Positions 43,291 through 48,590 of a stretch of 64,000 bases of DNA are shown here, piece by piece. How positions within the stretch are numbered: the stretch's first letter is position 1; each line of letters opens with the position of its first letter. Both the position numbers and the translations under genes were made by a program. Source of the stretch: Cupriavidus cauae. Lineage in GTDB: Bacteria > Pseudomonadota > Gammaproteobacteria > Burkholderiales > Burkholderiaceae. The stretch covers positions 62,001 to 126,000 of the forward strand of contig NZ_VWRN01000023.1 in NCBI RefSeq assembly GCF_008632125.1. The letters are read 5' to 3'. The notes beneath the pieces were generated by a model that searched no databases, had not been told where the DNA came from, and saw only the letters and a program-made list of their open reading frames with translations.

Positions 43291-44991
43291 ATGGGAATCT
43301 GGAACCTCTACTTCGCCGCCAAGCTCTACCTGTTCGCGATCGGACAGGTGCAGCCGCGCTGGCTGCTGAACCTGCTGTTCGCGCTGTGGCTGGTGCTGCC
43401 GGTGGAACACCGCGGCCTGCGCGTGCTGCGCCAGGTGCTGGCCGTGGTCGTCGGCGTGGCGCTGCTGTACCACGAATCGAACCTGCCGCCGTTCGCGCGG
43501 GTGGTCTCGCAGTTCTCGAACCTGAGCGCCTTCACGCCGGCCTATCTGCTGGAGCTGCTGCAGCGCTTCGTCAGTCCGCAGATGGTGCTGGGCGCGATCG
43601 TTGTTACGCTGGCCTATCTGGTGATCAACCGCTGGGTGCGCGTCACCACCTTCGTACTGCTCGCGCTGGTCGTGGTGCCGCTGTGGCAAGGGGCCGGCAC
43701 GGCTTCGACGGGCGCCGCGGCGACCGGGGCCGCCGCCACGCGCGCCGCGCAGCGCCCGGCTCCGACGATGCGGATCGACAGCCCGGCCGAGGTCGGCGAC
43801 AACGAGGCGCAGCTGAACGCGTTCCGCACGCAGGAGGCCTCGCGCCAGGTCGCGTTCACGCCGTTGAGCGCCTCGCCCGACAGCCAGTTCGACATCATCG
43901 TGCTGCATGTCTGCTCGCTGTCCTGGGACGATCTCGACGTCGCCAAGGCACGCAACCATCCGCTGCTGTCGCGCTTCGACTATCTGTTCACCGAGTTCAG
44001 TTCGGCGGCCAGCTACAGCGGTCCGGCGGCGATCCGGCTGCTGCGCGCAACCTGCGGGCAGCAGCCGCACCAGGCGTTGTACTCGCCGGCGCAGCCGCAA
44101 TGCCATCTGTTCGAGGCGCTGGCGCAGGCCGGCTTCGATACGCGCGTGCTGATGAACCACGATGGCCGCTTCGACAATTTCCGCGGCTTCGTCGACAAGG
44201 AGATCGGCATTCCGAACGTCACGCACGTGCCGGTCGACGGCGTGCCGCCGGCAATGCGGGCCTTCGACAATTCGCCGATCCTGGGCGACTACGCGGTGCT
44301 GGAGAAGTGGTACAAGTTTCGACTCGCGCAGAACAGCGGACCGCTGGCGCTGTACTACAACACGGTCACGCTGCACGACGGCAACCGCCTGCCGGATTCG
44401 AAGCTGACCAGCATCCAGTCGTATCCGCTGCGGCTGACGCGGCTGCTGGACGATATCGACAAGCTGATCGCGCTGATCGAGCAGTCGGGCCGCAAGGCGG
44501 TGGTGGTGTTCGTGCCCGAGCACGGCGCGGCGCTGCGTGGCGATGCCAACCAGATCGCCGGCATGCGCGAGATTCCAACGCCGCGGATCGTGCATGTGCC
44601 GGTGGGGGTCAAGCTGATCGGTCTGCAGGGTGGCAAGGCGGGCGGCGAGGTTGGCGGCAATGCGGGTGGTATTGCGGGCAGCGGTAGTGCCGGCGGCAAC
44701 GCGGGAGGTAATGCGGCAGGAAATGCCGCAGGCCATGCGCAGGGCAACGTCAATGGCGCCGGCGGGCCGGTGACGATCCACGCGCCGAGCAGCTATCTGG
44801 CGCTGTCGCAGCTGTTGTCGAACCTGGTCGCCGACAGTCCGTTCCGGCAGGGCGCCCCCGCGCCGTCGCAATACGCGGCGGACCTGCCGCAAACGCGCAT
44901 GGTCGGCGAAAACGAGGCGACCGTGATGATGAAGCGCGGCACCGGCTACGTGGTGCGCACGCCCGACGGCGTATGGGTGGATGGCAAATGA
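43291..44991 (+). CDS. bcsG: Cellulose phosphoethanolamine transferase BcsG
   Basis: A 566-residue inner-membrane protein: four or five N-terminal membrane spans, then a periplasmic alkaline-phosphatase-fold domain that transfers phosphoethanolamine to cellulose. The nucleophile motif ASYSGPAAIRLLRA is at residues 240-253. The expected zinc ligands are C208 (LHVCSLSWDD) and E410-H411 (FVPEHGAALRGD). An insertion of about 45 Gly/Ala/Asn residues (such as GGNAGGIAGSGSAGGNAGG) sits at about 447-491, where the enterobacterial protein has a short loop. The last base pairs overlap bcsR. Confidence 0.92.
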   Translation: MGIWNLYFAAKLYLFAIGQVQPRWLLNLLFALWLVLPVEHRGLRVLRQVLAVVVGVALLYHESNLPPFARVVSQFSNLSAFTPAYLLELLQRFVSPQMVLGAIVVTLAYLVINRWVRVTTFVLLALVVVPLWQGAGTASTGAAATGAAATRAAQRPAPTMRIDSPAEVGDNEAQLNAFRTQEASRQVAFTPLSASPDSQFDIIVLHVCSLSWDDLDVAKARNHPLLSRFDYLFTEFSSAASYSGPAAIRLLRATCGQQPHQALYSPAQPQCHLFEALAQAGFDTRVLMNHDGRFDNFRGFVDKEIGIPNVTHVPVDGVPPAMRAFDNSPILGDYAVLEKWYKFRLAQNSGPLALYYNTVTLHDGNRLPDSKLTSIQSYPLRLTRLLDDIDKLIALIEQSGRKAVVVFVPEHGAALRGDANQIAGMREIPTPRIVHVPVGVKLIGLQGGKAGGEVGGNAGGIAGSGSAGGNAGGNAAGNAAGHAQGNVNGAGGPVTIHAPSSYLALSQLLSNLVADSPFRQGAPAPSQYAADLPQTRMVGENEATVMMKRGTGYVVRTPDGVWVDGK

Positions 44992-45257
44992 GCGACGGCG
45001 AGCGCAAACGCGCCGGACTGCGGCGCGGCCTGCGAGCGCGGCACGCACCGCGGCCCAATAACGATATCGAGGCGCTGGCGATGAAGGTGCCGGGCTTCGC
45101 CGCGCATCGCTATGTCGACGAGCAGGAAGCCCAGGCGGCCCGCGCCGCCGCGGCGCGGTGGCCACGGCTGGCGGGATGGCTTGGCTATGGGAAGGACGGC
45201 GAGGCGGAGAGCCACGGCGCCGTCGACGCACCGGCGCTCAAGCCGTCGCCGCGTTGA
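44988..45257 (+). CDS. bcsR: BcsR-like cellulose regulator
   Basis: An 89-residue basic protein starting at 44988, overlapping the bcsG stop by 4 bp (ATGA). The core NNDIEALAMKVPGF, then YVDEQEAQAARAAAARWPRL, resembles the short BcsR family (ND-I-AL..., then ...RWPLLAEF in E. coli), which with BcsQ is needed for assembly of the synthase complex. In enterobacteria bcsR precedes bcsQ; here it is the last gene of the operon. Its 3' end overlaps the convergent tetR gene by 20 bp. Identity is by motif and context, moderately sure. Confidence 0.7.
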   Translation: MSDGERKRAGLRRGLRARHAPRPNNDIEALAMKVPGFAAHRYVDEQEAQAARAAAARWPRLAGWLGYGKDGEAESHGAVDAPALKPSPR

Positions 45258-45960
45258 GCGCCTGCGGCTCGGCCTTTGGCTCGTTCGTTGCGTTGCCCGC
45301 GGCCGAGGTCGAAGCCGACGACAACCCTGCCGGCACATCGGGTCCCGCCACCGCGGCCAGCAGCAGATTCGCCGCCGGCTCGAGCCGCTCGGCCTGATTG
45401 AACAGCCGCACGGACACCAGGCTGTTCTGCAAGGCCGCGAACAATACCTGCGCCAGCGCCGCCGAGCCGATCGCCGGCTGCGCATCGCCGCCGTTCTGCG
45501 CGCGGGCGCGCTCCAGCAGCGCCGTCAGCCAGCTTTCGTTGATCCGATGGAACTCCTGCAGCGCGTGATGCACCGCCGGCGGCAGGCACAGCGCCTCCGT
45601 CGACAGCATGCCGGCAAGACACACCTGTTGCCCGCTGCATTCGCGCCGCCACGACGCCAGATAACGCTTGGCCTGCTCCAGCGGCGGCAGCGCCGGATCG
45701 ATGCCCTCCAGGTAACGCGCCGAGCGTTCGCTGTAGGCGTTCACCGCTTCCAGTGCCAGGTCTTCCTTGGTCGGGAAGTAGTAATGGATGCTCGAAGTCT
45801 TGACGCCGACGCGCTCGGCCAGATCGCGGTAGCTGAAGCCGTTGAAGCCCCGCTTGCGGATCAGGTCGAGCGTGTGTTCGAGCAGCCTGTCACGGACCGT
45901 CGAGCTCGCGCCGGAGGGGTGACCCCGGCCGGCGGAGCGGGAAGTCGAAGCGTCTTTCAT
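45238..45960 (-). CDS. TetR/AcrR-family regulator
   Basis: A 240-residue TetR-family repressor. The helix-turn-helix is GFSYRDLAERVGVKTSSIHY followed by YFPTKEDLALEAV, at about residues 40-70 after a Ser/Gly-rich tail. The ligand domain includes SGQQVCLAGMLSTEALCL, similar to the NemR/AcrR group with reactive cysteines. The start is at 45960. It lies 47 bp downstream of the DGAR-repeat gene on the same strand and may be co-transcribed with it; two palindromes near 46856 and 46974 are its likely targets. It overlaps the convergent bcsR gene by 20 bp. Confidence 0.9.
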   Translation of the reverse strand: MKDASTSRSAGRGHPSGASSTVRDRLLEHTLDLIRKRGFNGFSYRDLAERVGVKTSSIHYYFPTKEDLALEAVNAYSERSARYLEGIDPALPPLEQAKRYLASWRRECSGQQVCLAGMLSTEALCLPPAVHHALQEFHRINESWLTALLERARAQNGGDAQPAIGSAALAQVLFAALQNSLVSVRLFNQAERLEPAANLLLAAVAGPDVPAGLSSASTSAAGNATNEPKAEPQALNAATA

Positions 45961-46007
45961 GACATGCCCTCCCCCGCTACCACGAGCGGCCGTTGCGGTA
46001 TTGCCCT

Positions 46008-46790
46008 TCAAGCGTTGGCACCTTCGGTGAACACGTCGAACTGGCCCTGGCGAGCGCCTTCGGTGAAGACATCGAAGCGGCCCTGGCGGGCGCCGTCGGT
46101 GTACGGGCTGCGCGACGGCTCGGCCGACACGCCGGTGCGATCGAGGCCGGCGACGAGCGCGCCTTCGGTGAACACGTCAAACTGGCCTTGGCGAGCGCCT
46201 TCGGTAAAGACATCGAAGCGACCCTGGCGCGCGCCGTCCGTGTACGGGCTGCGCGACGGCTCGGCCGACACGCCGGTGCGATCCAGGCCGGCGACGATGC
46301 GGGCGCCGTCTGTGTACGGGTCGAACTTGCCGCCACGGGCGCCGTCGGTGAACTGGTTCACGCTGCGAGCCGGGCTGGCCGACACGCCGGAGCGATCCAG
46401 GCCGGCGACGACGCGCGCGCCGTCGGTGTACGGGTCGAACTTGCCGCTACGGGCGCCGTCTGTGAACTGGTTCACGCTGCGAGCCGGGCTGGCCGACACG
46501 CCGGTGCGGTCCAGGCCGGCGACGATGCGGGCGCCATCGGTGTACGGGTCGGCCTTGCCGGTGCGAGCCCCGTCCGCGTACGGATCCGCCTTGCCGCTGC
46601 GGGCGCCGTCAACGAAGGTGTTGCGATTGCCGCTGCGGGCACCGTCGACATAGGTGCTGCGCTCGCCGGCGCGGAACTCGTAGCCGTACTTGTCGGCGGG
46701 AACGGTGGCAGCCTGCGCGGTGCCAGCCACGAAGGCGGCGGCAAGGGTGGCGGCGGTCAACAGGGTCTTGGCGAAGGTACGGTCGGTCAT
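46008..46790 (-). CDS. Secreted DGAR-repeat protein of unknown function
   Basis: A 260-residue exported protein. The signal peptide ends near AGTAQAATVP; almost all the rest is repetitive. A 12-residue unit of the form [YF]-T-[DE]-G-A-R-x-G-x-x-D-x occurs about 14 times (YVDGARSGNRNT, YADGARTGKADP, FTEGARQGQFDV and so on), interspersed with four copies of a longer unit of the type IVAGLDRTGVSAEPSRSP. A block spanning both unit types is duplicated near the C-terminus, which ends FTEGANA. No Cys, lipobox or membrane anchor is seen. AAAGGAGC precedes the start at 46790. A TetR gene follows. I do not recognise the family; a role in envelope stress or metal or surface binding is only speculation. 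Confidence 0.8.
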   Translation of the reverse strand: MTDRTFAKTLLTAATLAAAFVAGTAQAATVPADKYGYEFRAGERSTYVDGARSGNRNTFVDGARSGKADPYADGARTGKADPYTDGARIVAGLDRTGVSASPARSVNQFTDGARSGKFDPYTDGARVVAGLDRSGVSASPARSVNQFTDGARGGKFDPYTDGARIVAGLDRTGVSAEPSRSPYTDGARQGRFDVFTEGARQGQFDVFTEGALVAGLDRTGVSAEPSRSPYTDGARQGRFDVFTEGARQGQFDVFTEGANA

Positions 46791-46855
46791 GATTTGCTCC
46801 TTTCAGGAAGCCGCATCGCGGCTCGAATCGATTTGGGTTGGAATCCGGCTGTCGA

Positions 46856-46874
46856 ATCTACTAATAGATAGATA
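46856..46874. promoter_or_regulatory. Candidate TetR operator, proximal
   Basis: ATCTACTAATAGATAGATA contains ATCTA/TAGAT arms around a CTAA centre. It lies 66 bp upstream of the repeat-protein start and shares words with the distal site. It is AT-rich against a GC-rich background. Confidence 0.5.
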
Positions 46875-46973
46875 ACCCGACTCAAAAAAATCCCGGATTC
46901 CCGGGGTTGTTGCGTTGGACTGGTGCCGCTTCACTTCTTCTTCGCTGCGGCGCCGCATCCATGAGCCTCACTT

Positions 46974-46993
46974 TATCTACTACTAGGTAGATA
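46974..46993. promoter_or_regulatory. Candidate TetR operator, distal palindrome
   Basis: TATCTAC and GTAGATA are perfect inverted arms flanking TACTAG, in all 20 bp. The length and CTAC-core symmetry are typical of TetR-family operators. The rest of 46791-47143 shows no gene. Confidence 0.55.
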
Positions 46994-47143
46994 GTCAAGG
47001 AGTTTTTCGGGCGCTTCCGTTCGGGTGGGCGGAGACCATAATGCTTCGATACCGGCCACCCAGCCGTGGTGCGCCGATAAAGTCACTCCGATGCCTCACC
47101 GGCCTCGGATTGCCACCATCGAATCCTCACCCAAGAGACACCC

Positions 47144-47545
47144 ATGCAGATCCAACGCGGCCGCCTGATCGACCATCTCCACCTCAAGGTCCGCGACCTC
47201 GGCGCGTCGCGCCGCTTCTACGGCGCGGTGCTCGGCGTGCTGGGCATCGACATCACCGACGGCGATGGCTACTTCTACGCCGACGAGCTGTGGGTCGACG
47301 AAGGCACGCCGGGCCAGATCTCCCACGCCCACTTCGCCTTCCAGGCCAAGGACCGCGAAACGGTCGACGCCTTCTACAAGGCCGGCCTCGCCGCCGACGG
47401 CCGCGACAACGGCGGCCCCGGCGAGCGCGACTATCACCCCGGCTACTACGCGGCCTTCCTGCTGGATCCGGACGGGAACAACGTCGAGGCCGTCTACCAT
47501 GGGCCGCACCAGCGGTCGGCGGAGGCGGTGGTGGTCAGTTGGTGA
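47144..47545 (+). CDS. VOC-family (glyoxalase/dioxygenase-fold) protein
   Basis: A 133-residue single vicinal-oxygen-chelate protein. It begins with IDHLHLKVRDLGASRRFYGA, the first metal-ligand region (His), has SHAHFAFQAKDRETVDAFY and ends with a GYYAAFLLDPDGNNVEAVYH motif containing the C-terminal Glu. Similar proteins are uncharacterised glyoxalase/bleomycin-resistance relatives, so the substrate is unknown. The start at 47144 lies after CCAAGAGACACCC. Not linked to neighbours by operon structure. Confidence 0.9.
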   Translation: MQIQRGRLIDHLHLKVRDLGASRRFYGAVLGVLGIDITDGDGYFYADELWVDEGTPGQISHAHFAFQAKDRETVDAFYKAGLAADGRDNGGPGERDYHPGYYAAFLLDPDGNNVEAVYHGPHQRSAEAVVVSW

Positions 47546-47703
47546 GCCCGGCCGGGAAGTCGGCGAGCATCGCGTATATACAGAAGATTTTGCTTTTCGG
47601 CAGCATGACCAAGAAAATCGGCCGACAAAGTGCTTAAATAGGCCTCAACGTGGCGCATCGAGTATTTATCACGGTGCGCCACTTTTATTTCGAACTCACT
47701 TAC

Positions 47704-47713
47704 TGTATATACA
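47704..47713. promoter_or_regulatory. Repeated palindrome before the toxin-antitoxin pair
   Basis: TGTATATACA is a perfect 10-bp palindrome 9 bp before the toxin ATG. The same GTATATAC core occurs at 47574-47581. Paired short palindromes are typical autoregulatory sites of ribbon-helix-helix antitoxins. The leader is AT-rich. Confidence 0.45.
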
Positions 47714-47721
47714 CTCTCATC

Positions 47722-48006
47722 ATGAGCATAGTTCTCGCGCCTCGAATCATTGAGAAGCTGCGGACCAAGCACAATGTTTCCGAGGCGGAGGTGCGAGAGG
47801 CGTTCTCCAACATTTGCGGCCAACTCCTTATCGACACCCGAGAGGAACATGCCACCGACCCGCCAACGCTGTGGTTCGTTGCGGAGACCAACGCGGGCCG
47901 CTTGCTCAAGGTGATCTTCATCCACAAGGAAGGAAACAACGTCGTCAAGTCCGCTTACGACGCCTCCGAGAAGATCCAGGCCATCTACAACAAGTTCGGA
48001 AAGTAA
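47722..48006 (+). CDS. BrnT-like toxin
   Basis: A 94-residue basic protein. Features: RIIEKLRTKHNVSEAEVREA and WFVAETNAGRLLKVIFIHKE, with a C-terminal KSAYDASEKIQAIYNKFGK. The order of a K/R-rich helix with a KH-V-xx-EVxEAF segment, a beta-hairpin with (G)R-x-L-xVxF and a late A-YxA-x-EK...Y fits the BrnT branch of the RelE superfamily (RNA-cleaving toxins), but similarity is weak. The start at 47722 (MSIVLAPRIIEKL) is preferred over upstream codons. The partner antitoxin starts 16 bp downstream, the BrnT-BrnA order. Confidence 0.65.
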   Translation: MSIVLAPRIIEKLRTKHNVSEAEVREAFSNICGQLLIDTREEHATDPPTLWFVAETNAGRLLKVIFIHKEGNNVVKSAYDASEKIQAIYNKFGK

Positions 48007-48022
48007 CTGACCAGGAGAGGGT

Positions 48023-48370
48023 ATGACTCAAGCCGCCAAGATCCCGGGTACCGAAGAGGCATGGGACAACGGTACGCTGGGCGAAGACGAACACTACGTG
48101 GCCGTCGCGCCCAAGGACCTGCAGGACTCGGTGAATCAGTCGCTGGGGATGCAGGCGATCTCGATTCGCCTGCCCAAGGACCTGCTGGAGCAATACAAGG
48201 CCATTGCCCAATATCACAAGATGGGCTACCAGCCGCTGATGCGCGAAGCGCTTACGCGTTTCGCGACCTCGGAGATGAAACGGATCGTCATCGAGGTCAG
48301 CAACGAGCGCGACCAGGCGCGAGAGGAACAACGTGAGCCTGGGCCAAAGGCTCGCCGGAAGGCCGCCTGA
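48023..48370 (+). CDS. Ribbon-helix-helix antitoxin, BrnA/CopG-like
   Basis: A 115-residue protein with a ribbon-helix-helix DNA-binding core: QAISIRLPKDLLEQYKAIAQ followed by YHKMGYQPLMREALTRF, at about residues 44-80. The beta-strand-helix-helix pattern is that of CopG/Arc-type repressors used as antitoxins. AGGAGAGGGT is its ribosome site. It follows the toxin gene by 16 bp and ends in a basic tail (KARRKAA). It probably neutralises the toxin and represses the pair through the 47704 palindrome. Confidence 0.75.
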   Translation: MTQAAKIPGTEEAWDNGTLGEDEHYVAVAPKDLQDSVNQSLGMQAISIRLPKDLLEQYKAIAQYHKMGYQPLMREALTRFATSEMKRIVIEVSNERDQAREEQREPGPKARRKAA

Positions 48371-48499: not shown

Positions 48500-48590
48500 T
48501 GGCGGAGAGAGGGGGATTCGAACCCCCGATGGGCTATTAACCCATACACGCTTTCCAGGCGTGCGACTTAAACCACTCATCCATCTCTCC
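48500..48590 (-). tRNA. tRNA-Ser (anticodon GGA)
   Basis: A 91-nt class II tRNA with a long variable arm. The acceptor arms GGAGAGA and TCTCTCC pair, followed by discriminator G and an encoded CCA. The anticodon loop gives GGA, with stem GCACGCC... and GCGTG. The T-arm has GGTTCGAATCC. The -10-like TATAAT upstream (complement of 48602-48607) can serve as promoter. Confidence 0.97.

What the first reader, a model, noticed from the sequence alone, without database searches (positions are those of the whole stretch)
46008..46993. Secreted DGAR-repeat protein with an adjacent TetR regulator and twin palindromes
A 260-residue exported protein is built of about 14 twelve-residue [YF]T[DE]GAR-type units and four longer GLDRTGVSA-type units, including a duplicated block near its C-terminus. 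I recognise no family. A TetR gene lies 47 bp downstream on the same strand, and two palindromes (46856-46874 and 46974-46993) sit upstream of the repeat gene. Together they look like a self-contained, ligand-controlled envelope module of unknown purpose.
Basis: partly seen in the sequence, partly recalled or inferred. Interest (0 to 1): 0.7.

Follow-up and report, generated by a model that had tools for sequence, protein, structure and literature searches.

The report
Redox-linked TetR switch for repeat protein
A secreted, probably unfolded repeat protein of a known but poorly understood metal-stress family sits beside its own repressor gene and a twin switch site, and close relatives of that repressor in sister bacteria sit beside peroxide-defence genes, so the protein probably helps the cell envelope survive oxidant and toxic-metal stress.

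Summary
The 260-aa protein has 14 [DE]GA units and four GLDR[TS]GVSA units; a TetR gene starts 47 nt after it. The twin sites are the only matches in the window, and the 5.75-Mb genome has two more, upstream of a second copy of the module. 'No known family' is wrong: it is CopQ-like (CopQ/CzcJ/MmsQ/PrsQ), repeat proteins of Cupriavidus and Ralstonia, many metal-induced.

New here: of 122 close TetR homologues in 60 Cupriavidus genomes, 120 lie directly behind a CopQ-like gene, and 111 of 113 modules with enough upstream sequence carry twin operators. The distal operator fills the 17-bp spacer of the only sigma-70-like promoter found; a terminator lies between the operators.

In sister genera the same TetR usually sits before Ohr peroxidase, esterase or rubrerythrin genes (15 of 20 loci), mostly with the same operator. 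The matching B. cenocepacia cluster is induced by H2O2 and bleach. One cysteine is invariant and aligns with NemR Cys106.

Best reading: an autoregulated thiol-stress repressor, rewired in Cupriavidus from peroxide detoxification to a disordered, cysteine-free periplasmic protein. DNA binding, signal and protein function are inferred, not shown.

The parts
46008..46790 (-). CopQ-like secreted repeat protein gene (260 aa; 14 [DE]GA units, 4 GLDR[TS]GVSA units)
   Evidence: matches CzcJ of pMOL30
46710..46790 (-). predicted Sec signal peptide (residues 1-27, AQA|A site)
   Evidence: sequence reading; AlphaFold helix 3-25; no signal-peptide program was run
46155..46298 (-). first copy of the duplicated 48-residue block (residues 165-212)
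   Evidence: 46 of 48 aa and 132 of 144 nt identical to the second copy
46014..46157 (-). second copy of the duplicated block (residues 212-259)
45238..45960 (-). TetR-family regulator gene (240 aa), 47 nt downstream of the repeat gene
   Evidence: AlphaFold mean pLDDT 87
45619..45621 (-). codon of TetR Cys114, the invariant cysteine
   Evidence: 75 of 75 distinct genus sequences; invariant in the 26-sequence alignment A1; aligns with NemR chain residue 108
46993..46998 (-). -35 box TTGACT of promoter P1
   Evidence: the TTG is present in 109 of 109 distinct O1 contexts
46975..46993 (-). distal operator O1, filling the 17-bp spacer of P1 and overlapping each hexamer by one base
46970..46975 (-). 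-10 box TAAAGT of promoter P1
46883..46964 (-). predicted short leader RNA beginning at the conserved CATGG box (ATG at 46962-46960)
   Evidence: same ATG offset as the tetR start codon in 13 of 18 sister-genus loci
46884..46905 (-). intrinsic terminator: 5-bp G-C stem, GAAT loop, then T7
   Evidence: one such hit; 1.3 expected by shuffles; hairpin before the T-run in 95 of 103 distinct leaders against 9.7 expected
46856..46874 (-). proximal operator O2, between the terminator and the repeat gene

Best explanation
This is an autoregulated stress switch. The TetR protein binds two operators upstream of its own operon: O1, inside the -35/-10 spacer of promoter P1, and O2, just after a terminator about 120 bp downstream. 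It thereby silences the CopQ-like gene and, by co-transcription, itself. Thiol-reactive stress (peroxides, hypochlorite, or thiophilic metals such as Cd, Hg and Pb) modifies the invariant Cys114 and releases the repressor. The induced product is exported to the periplasm as an unfolded, cysteine-free, near-neutral repeat protein that raises envelope tolerance. The module descends from a 'P1/O1-tetR-O2-ohr' peroxide circuit still present in sister genera; in Cupriavidus the peroxidase target was replaced by CopQ-like genes and tetR moved behind the target. Shown from sequence: gene order, operator-like sites, promoter and terminator patterns, their conservation, Cys114, and the sister-genus ohr context. 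Inferred: binding, signal, derepression, co-transcription, export, direction of the rewiring, and protective function.
For: Of 122 close TetR homologues, 120 follow a CopQ-like gene, against 0 of 3 distant TetR controls. Two operator-like sites occur in 111 of 113 modules with at least 280 nt upstream. Operator matches occur in 58 of 60 genus genomes with 0 control matches. O1 fills the spacer of the only sigma-70-like promoter found in 2 kb, an arrangement conserved in 109 distinct contexts. The TetR recognition helix is nearly invariant and Cys114 invariant. In 20 sister-genus neighbourhoods the operator precedes tetR in 18 and lies within 420 nt after it in 16; the next gene is an OsmC/Ohr-type protein in 10, an exported Abhydrolase_3-type protein in 3 and rubrerythrin in 2 (Pfam on representatives). 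B. multivorans and B. pyrrocinia are annotated TetR, organic hydroperoxide resistance, alpha/beta hydrolase. B. cenocepacia J2315 BCAS0084-0085-0086 (TetR, Ohr, exported lipase) rise 5.9/49.3/96.6-fold with H2O2 and 3.8/20.3/11.3-fold with NaOCl (PMC2830190). C. metallidurans CH34 orthologues are metal-induced: mmtQ by Cd, Hg and Pb (PMC2864759; mapping). PrsQ1 and PrsQ2 deletion led to loss of silver resistance in NA4S (PMC7380067). Profile and fold matches to NemR. AlphaFold of the CopQ-like protein: mean pLDDT 50, no fold beyond the signal helix.
Against: No binding, expression or phenotype data exist for this organism. mmtQ is reported as not induced by Cu or Ni, and that statement is 'data not shown'. 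NemR's Lys175, partner of Cys106 in its proposed bleach switch, aligns with an invariant Arg185 here, so NemR chemistry cannot simply be copied. No promoter was found at O2, so how the CopQ-like gene is transcribed past the terminator is unresolved. The two rubrerythrin loci have no operator-like site after tetR, and 5 of 20 sister loci have another or unassigned next gene. Only 17 of 41 sister-genus sites have flanks that fit the P1 layout. BCAS0084 was matched to this TetR subfamily by gene order and by another B. cenocepacia strain, not by its own sequence. CopQ-like genes in the second genus (g48) lack a close TetR, and other family members are under CopSR or AgrR, so the TetR does not explain the whole family.
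Confidence: 0.6

Rival explanations
1. The TetR represses the CopQ-like gene through the twin sites but responds to a reversible small-molecule ligand (a metabolite or a membrane-derived compound), not to thiol chemistry; Cys114 is structural.
For: Most characterised TetR regulators bind small ligands (general knowledge). The best NCBIfam partial match is AcuR, an acrylate-utilisation regulator, far below its cut-off (40.5 against 247 bits). Cys114 is also conserved in 2g7s and 3on4, proteins whose titles name no signal.
Against: The same TetR precedes Ohr, rubrerythrin or esterase genes in 15 of 20 sister loci, and the B. cenocepacia cluster of that layout responds to H2O2 and, after 5 min, to NaOCl (PMC2830190).
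Confidence: 0.25
2. The CopQ-like protein is a metal-binding or surface-sorption protein whose repeats chelate metal ions; the redox link is secondary.
For: Named family members are induced by metals (PMC2864759), and PrsQ1 and PrsQ2 are needed for silver resistance in NA4S (PMC7380067). The repeats hold 31 Asp or Glu in 233 mature residues.
Against: 0 of 110 distinct module proteins have a mature cysteine and only 25 of 110 have a histidine; net charge runs from -5 to +2. Such a composition is poor for soft-metal chelation (inference).
Confidence: 0.2
3. The P1/O1 unit makes a TetR-controlled small RNA (about 50-110 nt) that acts in trans, separate from the CopQ-like gene.
For: Promoter, CATGG box and terminator are conserved although the leader peptide is not.
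Against: The middle of the leader varies in length and sequence, there is no Rfam match, and pairing with the CopQ-like 5' UTR is not above shuffles (mean z -0.44, sd 0.86, over 104 leaders). The CATGG box can be explained as a relic of the leaderless tetR start.
Confidence: 0.2
4. Neighbourhood coincidence: the TetR controls something else and the palindromes bind another factor.
For: No binding data.
Against: 120 of 122 adjacency; sites before CopQ-like genes in the own genome (4 of 4) and in 15 of 17 hand-picked site regions elsewhere; co-occurrence of the operator with this TetR across genera.
Confidence: 0.03

Closest known systems
CopQ-like proteins of Cupriavidus/Ralstonia (CopQ, CzcJ, MmrQ, MmmQ, MmtQ, MmsQ, PrsQ1/2; PMC2864759, PMC7563307, PMC7380067)
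   Same: Signal-like N-terminus plus repeated xDxxTDGA-type units; alignable with CzcJ; confined to Cupriavidus and one further genus in the genomes searched, apart from one borderline match. CH34 mmtQ, mmsQ and mmsQ1 carry the same twin operators.
   Different: 14 units, the highest count among 110 distinct module proteins and shared with one other, where the paper describes 3 to 4; interleaved GLDRTGVSA units; a dedicated TetR. Published control of other members is by AgrR (prsQ2) and CopSR (copQ).
TetR-Ohr-hydrolase cluster of Burkholderia (BCAS0084-0086 in B. cenocepacia; annotated records)
   Same: Same TetR subfamily (44-52% identity in named Burkholderia and Paraburkholderia records), same operator, tetR ATG 30 nt from O1 in 13 of 18 loci, invariant Cys114.
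   Different: The target is a peroxidase or esterase, and tetR comes before it rather than after it.
NemR of E. coli (PDB 4yze)
   Same: TetR fold (Foldseek E 2.6e-7); invariant Cys114 aligns with NemR chain residue 108, taken as Cys106.
   Different: 23% identity; NemR Lys175 is Arg here; different operator (recalled) and different targets (NemA and GloA, PMC7464077).

Membership tests
CopQ-like proteins | repeated RDxxTDG-type motif, 3-4 or more copies | tested here: met
   14 [DE]GA units, mostly of xDx[YF]T[DE]GA type; the Arg of RDxxTDG is usually Phe or Ala here
CopQ-like proteins | N-terminal signal sequence | tested here: inconclusive
   sequence pattern and AlphaFold helix 3-25; no signal-peptide predictor was run
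CopQ-like proteins | homology to a named member | tested here: met
   BLASTP against CzcJ E 6e-13; low-complexity repeats inflate this score; CzcJ was identified by its place beside czcE
CopQ-like proteins | restricted to Cupriavidus and Ralstonia | tested here: met
   36 of 36 genus genomes and 0 of 24 other-family genomes; within the family 20 of 120 genomes from 3 of 25 genera, one of them borderline at E 9.7e-4; genera are unnamed in these calls
CopQ-like proteins | induction by metals | not testable with these tools
   reported for the CH34 members (PMC2864759)
TetR-family regulators | TetR_N DNA-binding domain and all-helical fold | tested here: met
   Pfam E 4e-12; AlphaFold plus Foldseek
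NemR (bleach/electrophile sensor) | equivalogue-level similarity | tested here: inconclusive
   no NemR model among the 20 NCBIfam matches listed, but whether the library holds one was not checked; 23% identity to 4yze
NemR (bleach/electrophile sensor) | Cys106 and Lys175 pair | tested here: not met
   the Cys is conserved, the Lys position is an invariant Arg185
Ohr-linked TetR subfamily of Burkholderiaceae | shared operator and recognition helix | tested here: met
Ohr-linked TetR subfamily of Burkholderiaceae | adjacent ohr, esterase or rubrerythrin gene | tested here: not met
   in Cupriavidus the neighbour is a CopQ-like gene (120 of 122)

The most novel reading that the evidence does not exclude
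Across a whole genus, a peroxide-sensing TetR/Ohr switch was rewired: the detoxifying enzyme was replaced by an intrinsically disordered, cysteine-free periplasmic repeat protein, so that an unfolded protein rather than an enzyme is the output of thiol-stress sensing. The old tetR promoter, with its leaderless start codon fossilised as a CATGG box, was kept as a terminated leader RNA that times or damps the response.
Probability: 0.35. Interest if true: 0.75.

Novelty: new variant of a known kind. Interest (0 to 1): 0.6.

Why it matters
CopQ-like proteins are a highly expanded family of Cupriavidus (7 to 38 tblastn matches per genus genome; 21 homologues in CH34, PMC7563307), yet their role and most of their control are unknown. 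This work gives a predicted regulator, operator, promoter and signal class for a core subset, including mmtQ, mmsQ and mmsQ1 of CH34, so their function becomes directly testable. The CH34 genome paper recognised only MerR, ArsR and Fur types among one-component metal regulators and suggested that TetR members might be worth a look (PMC2864759); this is a concrete candidate that ties metal induction to thiol chemistry.

Tried and rejected
Peptide leader: the ORF from the conserved ATG in the leader is not conserved (stop positions vary widely; 40 of 105 distinct stretches show no stop before the end of O2), so a coding leader was rejected. Rfam: no match. DNA looping by helical phasing of the O1-O2 spacing: a periodicity near 11.25 bp (R 0.51, p 0.002 against a jitter null, 33 clusters) is off the 10.5-bp repeat and rests on related lineages, so it is left open. 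Leader pairing with the CopQ-like 5' UTR: no signal (mean z -0.44). Pfam, NCBIfam and PHROG matches of the repeat protein are treated as low-complexity noise; the best Pfam one, to a clostridial toxin calcium-binding domain (E 0.0037, 17.8 bits), is below its cut-off of 25. Solved structures for the CopQ-like profile: none at E 0.1. Literature: the repeat strings gave only unrelated papers (listing). Four papers hold copQ, TetR and Cupriavidus together; I looked up the TetR passages of all four and none links a CopQ-like gene to a TetR regulator. Mijnendonckx 2019, the key PrsQ paper, was not read and is known only through PMC7380067. A divergent glyoxalase-like (VOC) gene invited a NemR/GloA analogy, but homologues were found next to the module only in the closest relatives, so it was dropped.

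Full report
WHAT IS THERE. The gene at 46008-46790 (-) encodes a 260-residue protein with an N-terminal signal-like helix and 14 [DE]GA units plus four GLDR[TS]GVSA units. Composition shuffles give 0.6 [DE]GA on average and never more than 4 in 1000. The C-terminal 48-residue block is a tandem duplication (46 of 48 aa, 132 of 144 nt; 9 of 12 differences at third positions). The mature protein, taken as residues 28-260, has 233 residues, no Cys, His, Met or Trp, 14.6% Gly and net charge -1. AlphaFold with a 34-sequence alignment gives mean pLDDT 50, pTM 0.18 and, besides the signal helix, only one 4-residue helix; low confidence fits disorder but does not prove it. The TetR gene (45238-45960) starts 47 nt further on. 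The two sites are 46856-46874 and 46975-46993, the only matches in the window.

FAMILY. The genome is a Cupriavidus: the nearest named matches are C. gilardii (85% in the best segment). The own genome has 12 tblastn matches of the repeat protein, some of them pieces of one gene. Among 60 'relatives', 36 of 36 genus genomes (own included) match, with 7 to 38 matches each, and 0 of 24 genomes of other families of the order do. Within the family 20 of 120 genomes match: 10 of this genus, 9 of one other genus (g48, unnamed; presumably Ralstonia) and one borderline case at E 9.7e-4. In the plasmid collection 20 records match, all Cupriavidus; one hit lies beside czcE on pMOL30. Its 92-aa product is CzcJ by position, since the published cluster reads czcMNICBADRSEJ ompP czcP. 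[quoted passage not shown] PMC7563307 (passages) counts 21 copQ homologues in CH34, many of them metal-induced. PMC7380067 (passages) reports that deletion derivatives for PrsQ1 and PrsQ2 lost the resistance of a silver-resistant mutant. The window protein is therefore a large CopQ-like protein, not an unknown family.

THE MODULE IS GENUS-WIDE. The TetR has homologues at E <= 1e-20 in 59 of 60 genus genomes, usually two; the miss is a 78%-complete genome. Its table sums to 125 matches. I held the neighbourhoods, and the census likewise finds 125 distinct TetR genes, of which 3 are distant ones kept as controls (27-31% identity). Of the 122 close ones, 120 have a CopQ-like ORF immediately upstream on the same strand (gap 47-353 nt); the two exceptions are L194 and L221. 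Of the controls, 0 of 3 do; three is few. CopQ-like was called here by at least two motif matches in the open frame. Seven of the 120 modules have less than 280 nt upstream because the stretch or contig ends; of the other 113, 111 have exactly two operator-like sites (at most one mismatch in the ten arm bases ATCTA/TAGAT), one has one (L200) and one has none (L212). Spacing is mostly 118-147 bp, with a few at 87-115. The operator pattern with one mismatch occurs in 58 of 60 genomes, the misses being 54% and 78% complete, and the reversed control pattern in none. Of 17 further site regions outside close-TetR neighbourhoods that I fetched, a hand-picked part of a capped list, 15 have a CopQ-like ORF downstream, so some CopQ-like genes look like unlinked targets of the same repressor. 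The second genus does not share the pairing: among the 9 g48 genomes with CopQ-like matches the only TetR match at E <= 1e-15 is a distant one at 1.6e-19.

CH34 LINK. Contig G031:C4 has the exact length of the CH34 chromid record (2,580,084), and TetR lies at the same place in the named record. Its three operator-bearing CopQ-like genes start at 770787, 1570798 and 2348832. The last two encode proteins identical at 164 of 165 positions, as published for mmsQ (Rmet_4908) and its almost identical paralogue mmsQ1 (Rmet_5594). The three positions are linear in the locus-tag numbers with mmtQ (Rmet_4187) as the first (residuals up to 6 kb). So mmtQ and mmsQ carry TetR and twin sites, and mmsQ1 carries the sites without a close TetR; only a different TetR-like stretch (35% over 66 residues) lies upstream of it. 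PMC2864759 says mmtQ is highly induced by Cd, Hg and Pb, moderately by Zn, and not by Cu or Ni (data not shown there).

PROMOTER ARCHITECTURE. In 45200-47250 a generic scan finds one sigma-70-like promoter, TTGACT-17-TAAAGT at 46998-46970 (-), whose spacer is filled by O1 (0.1 expected from shuffles), and one terminator, at 46905-46892 (-) followed by T7, between O1 and O2. Terminator-like hits are expected at 1.3 per shuffle, so that hit alone is weak. Alignment of 111 modules (109 distinct O1 contexts) shows TTG directly before O1 in all, a -10-like TAgtAT, and a CATGG box 29-33 nt from the O1 start at 97-100%. Before O2 a T-run of five or more is present in 103 of 104 distinct leaders, with a hairpin of at least 4 bp in 95 of 103 against 9.7 expected from shuffles, using 22 different 5' arms. 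That pattern of changed but still paired stems supports a real terminator. The leader between them is variable and not a conserved peptide. I found no promoter at O2, so whether the CopQ-like gene is reached by read-through or from an unseen start at O2 is open.

WHAT THE TETR SENSES. The same TetR subfamily occurs in other genera of the family (65 of 120 genomes at E <= 1e-15, 10 of them of this genus). I fetched 20 of about 50 listed other-genus places at E below 1e-28. The operator lies before tetR in 18 of 20 and within 420 nt after it in 16 of 20. The next gene is an OsmC/Ohr-type protein in 10, an exported Abhydrolase_3-type protein in 3, rubrerythrin in 2; 5 are other or unassigned (by reading the ORFs; Pfam run on five of these proteins). 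The two rubrerythrin loci and one Ohr locus (L256) show no site after tetR. Annotated B. multivorans and B. pyrrocinia records read TetR, organic hydroperoxide resistance protein, alpha/beta hydrolase. An unannotated B. cenocepacia record has the same three genes and the operators. PMC2830190 (passages and tables) reports B. cenocepacia J2315 BCAS0084 (TetR), BCAS0085 (Ohr) and BCAS0086 (exported lipase) up 5.9, 49.3 and 96.6-fold after H2O2 (30 min) and 3.8, 20.3 and 11.3-fold after NaOCl (5 min). Identity of that cluster with the subfamily rests on gene order.

TETR CYSTEINE. Cys114 is present in 75 of 75 distinct sequences from the genus loci then held, one of them in a record titled Ralstonia sp., in 20 of 20 sister-genus sequences and in all 26 rows of A1, while the other two cysteines vary. 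A profile search aligns it with residue 108 of the NemR chain 4yze, and Arg185 with residue 177. Two extra N-terminal residues in that chain (my inference, consistent for both) make these Cys106 and Lys175, the pair that PMC7464077 (passages) names for the HOCl response. The cysteine is shared but the lysine is not, so this is not filed as NemR. Foldseek ranks 3on4, 2g7s and then NemR first.

EVOLUTION. In 13 of 18 sister-genus loci with an operator before tetR, the first in-frame tetR ATG lies exactly 30 nt from the O1 start, the same place as the conserved ATGG in the Cupriavidus leader. The simplest reading is that Cupriavidus P1/O1 is the old, leaderless tetR promoter, that tetR now lies behind the new target, and that the leader is what remains between promoter and terminator. 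This is inference; a T-run of five or more between tetR and the next operator is present in only 5 of 16 sister loci, and only 17 of 41 sister sites have flanks that fit the P1 layout.

HOW SURE. TetR control of the CopQ-like gene through these sites: about 0.85. Thiol or redox signal through Cys114: about 0.6. Disordered periplasmic protective protein: about 0.65, with no mechanism shown. In the library searched (listings, with passages read in the papers named here) I saw no paper that links CopQ-like genes to a TetR regulator, but most subscription papers are not held.

Noticed in passing
47144-47545 (+): A glyoxalase/VOC-family gene (Pfam E 4.9e-11) is transcribed away from the module. Homologues at 82-95% lie next to the module in the closest relatives fetched; none at E 1e-10 was found within the flanks held of the other loci.
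   Followed up: partly
47650-48370 (+): Two small genes in tandem; the second is a sub-threshold CopG-type antitoxin match (E 5.3e-6, 27.5 bits against a cut-off of 28), the first has no Pfam match: possibly a toxin-antitoxin pair.
   Followed up: partly
43291-44991 (+): BcsG cellulose-modification gene (Pfam CBP_BcsG E 3.4e-199) ends about 250 bp from the tetR stop, converging with it.
   Followed up: no
48500-48590 (-): tRNA-Ser (gga) near the possible toxin-antitoxin pair.
   Followed up: no
L264 2956, 3603, 3670; also L258, L261, L262: In some sister-genus loci the target gene also has two operators, there only 65-67 bp apart, so twin sites may predate the Cupriavidus arrangement.
   Followed up: partly
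Cupriavidus leaders, e.g. window 46883-46964 (-): Besides the CATGG box, many leaders share a TCCAnnGCAAYACC-like stretch just before the terminator hairpin; its role is unknown.
   Followed up: no
L194 and L221: Two close TetR homologues without a recognisable CopQ-like gene upstream; not examined for degenerate copies.
   Followed up: no
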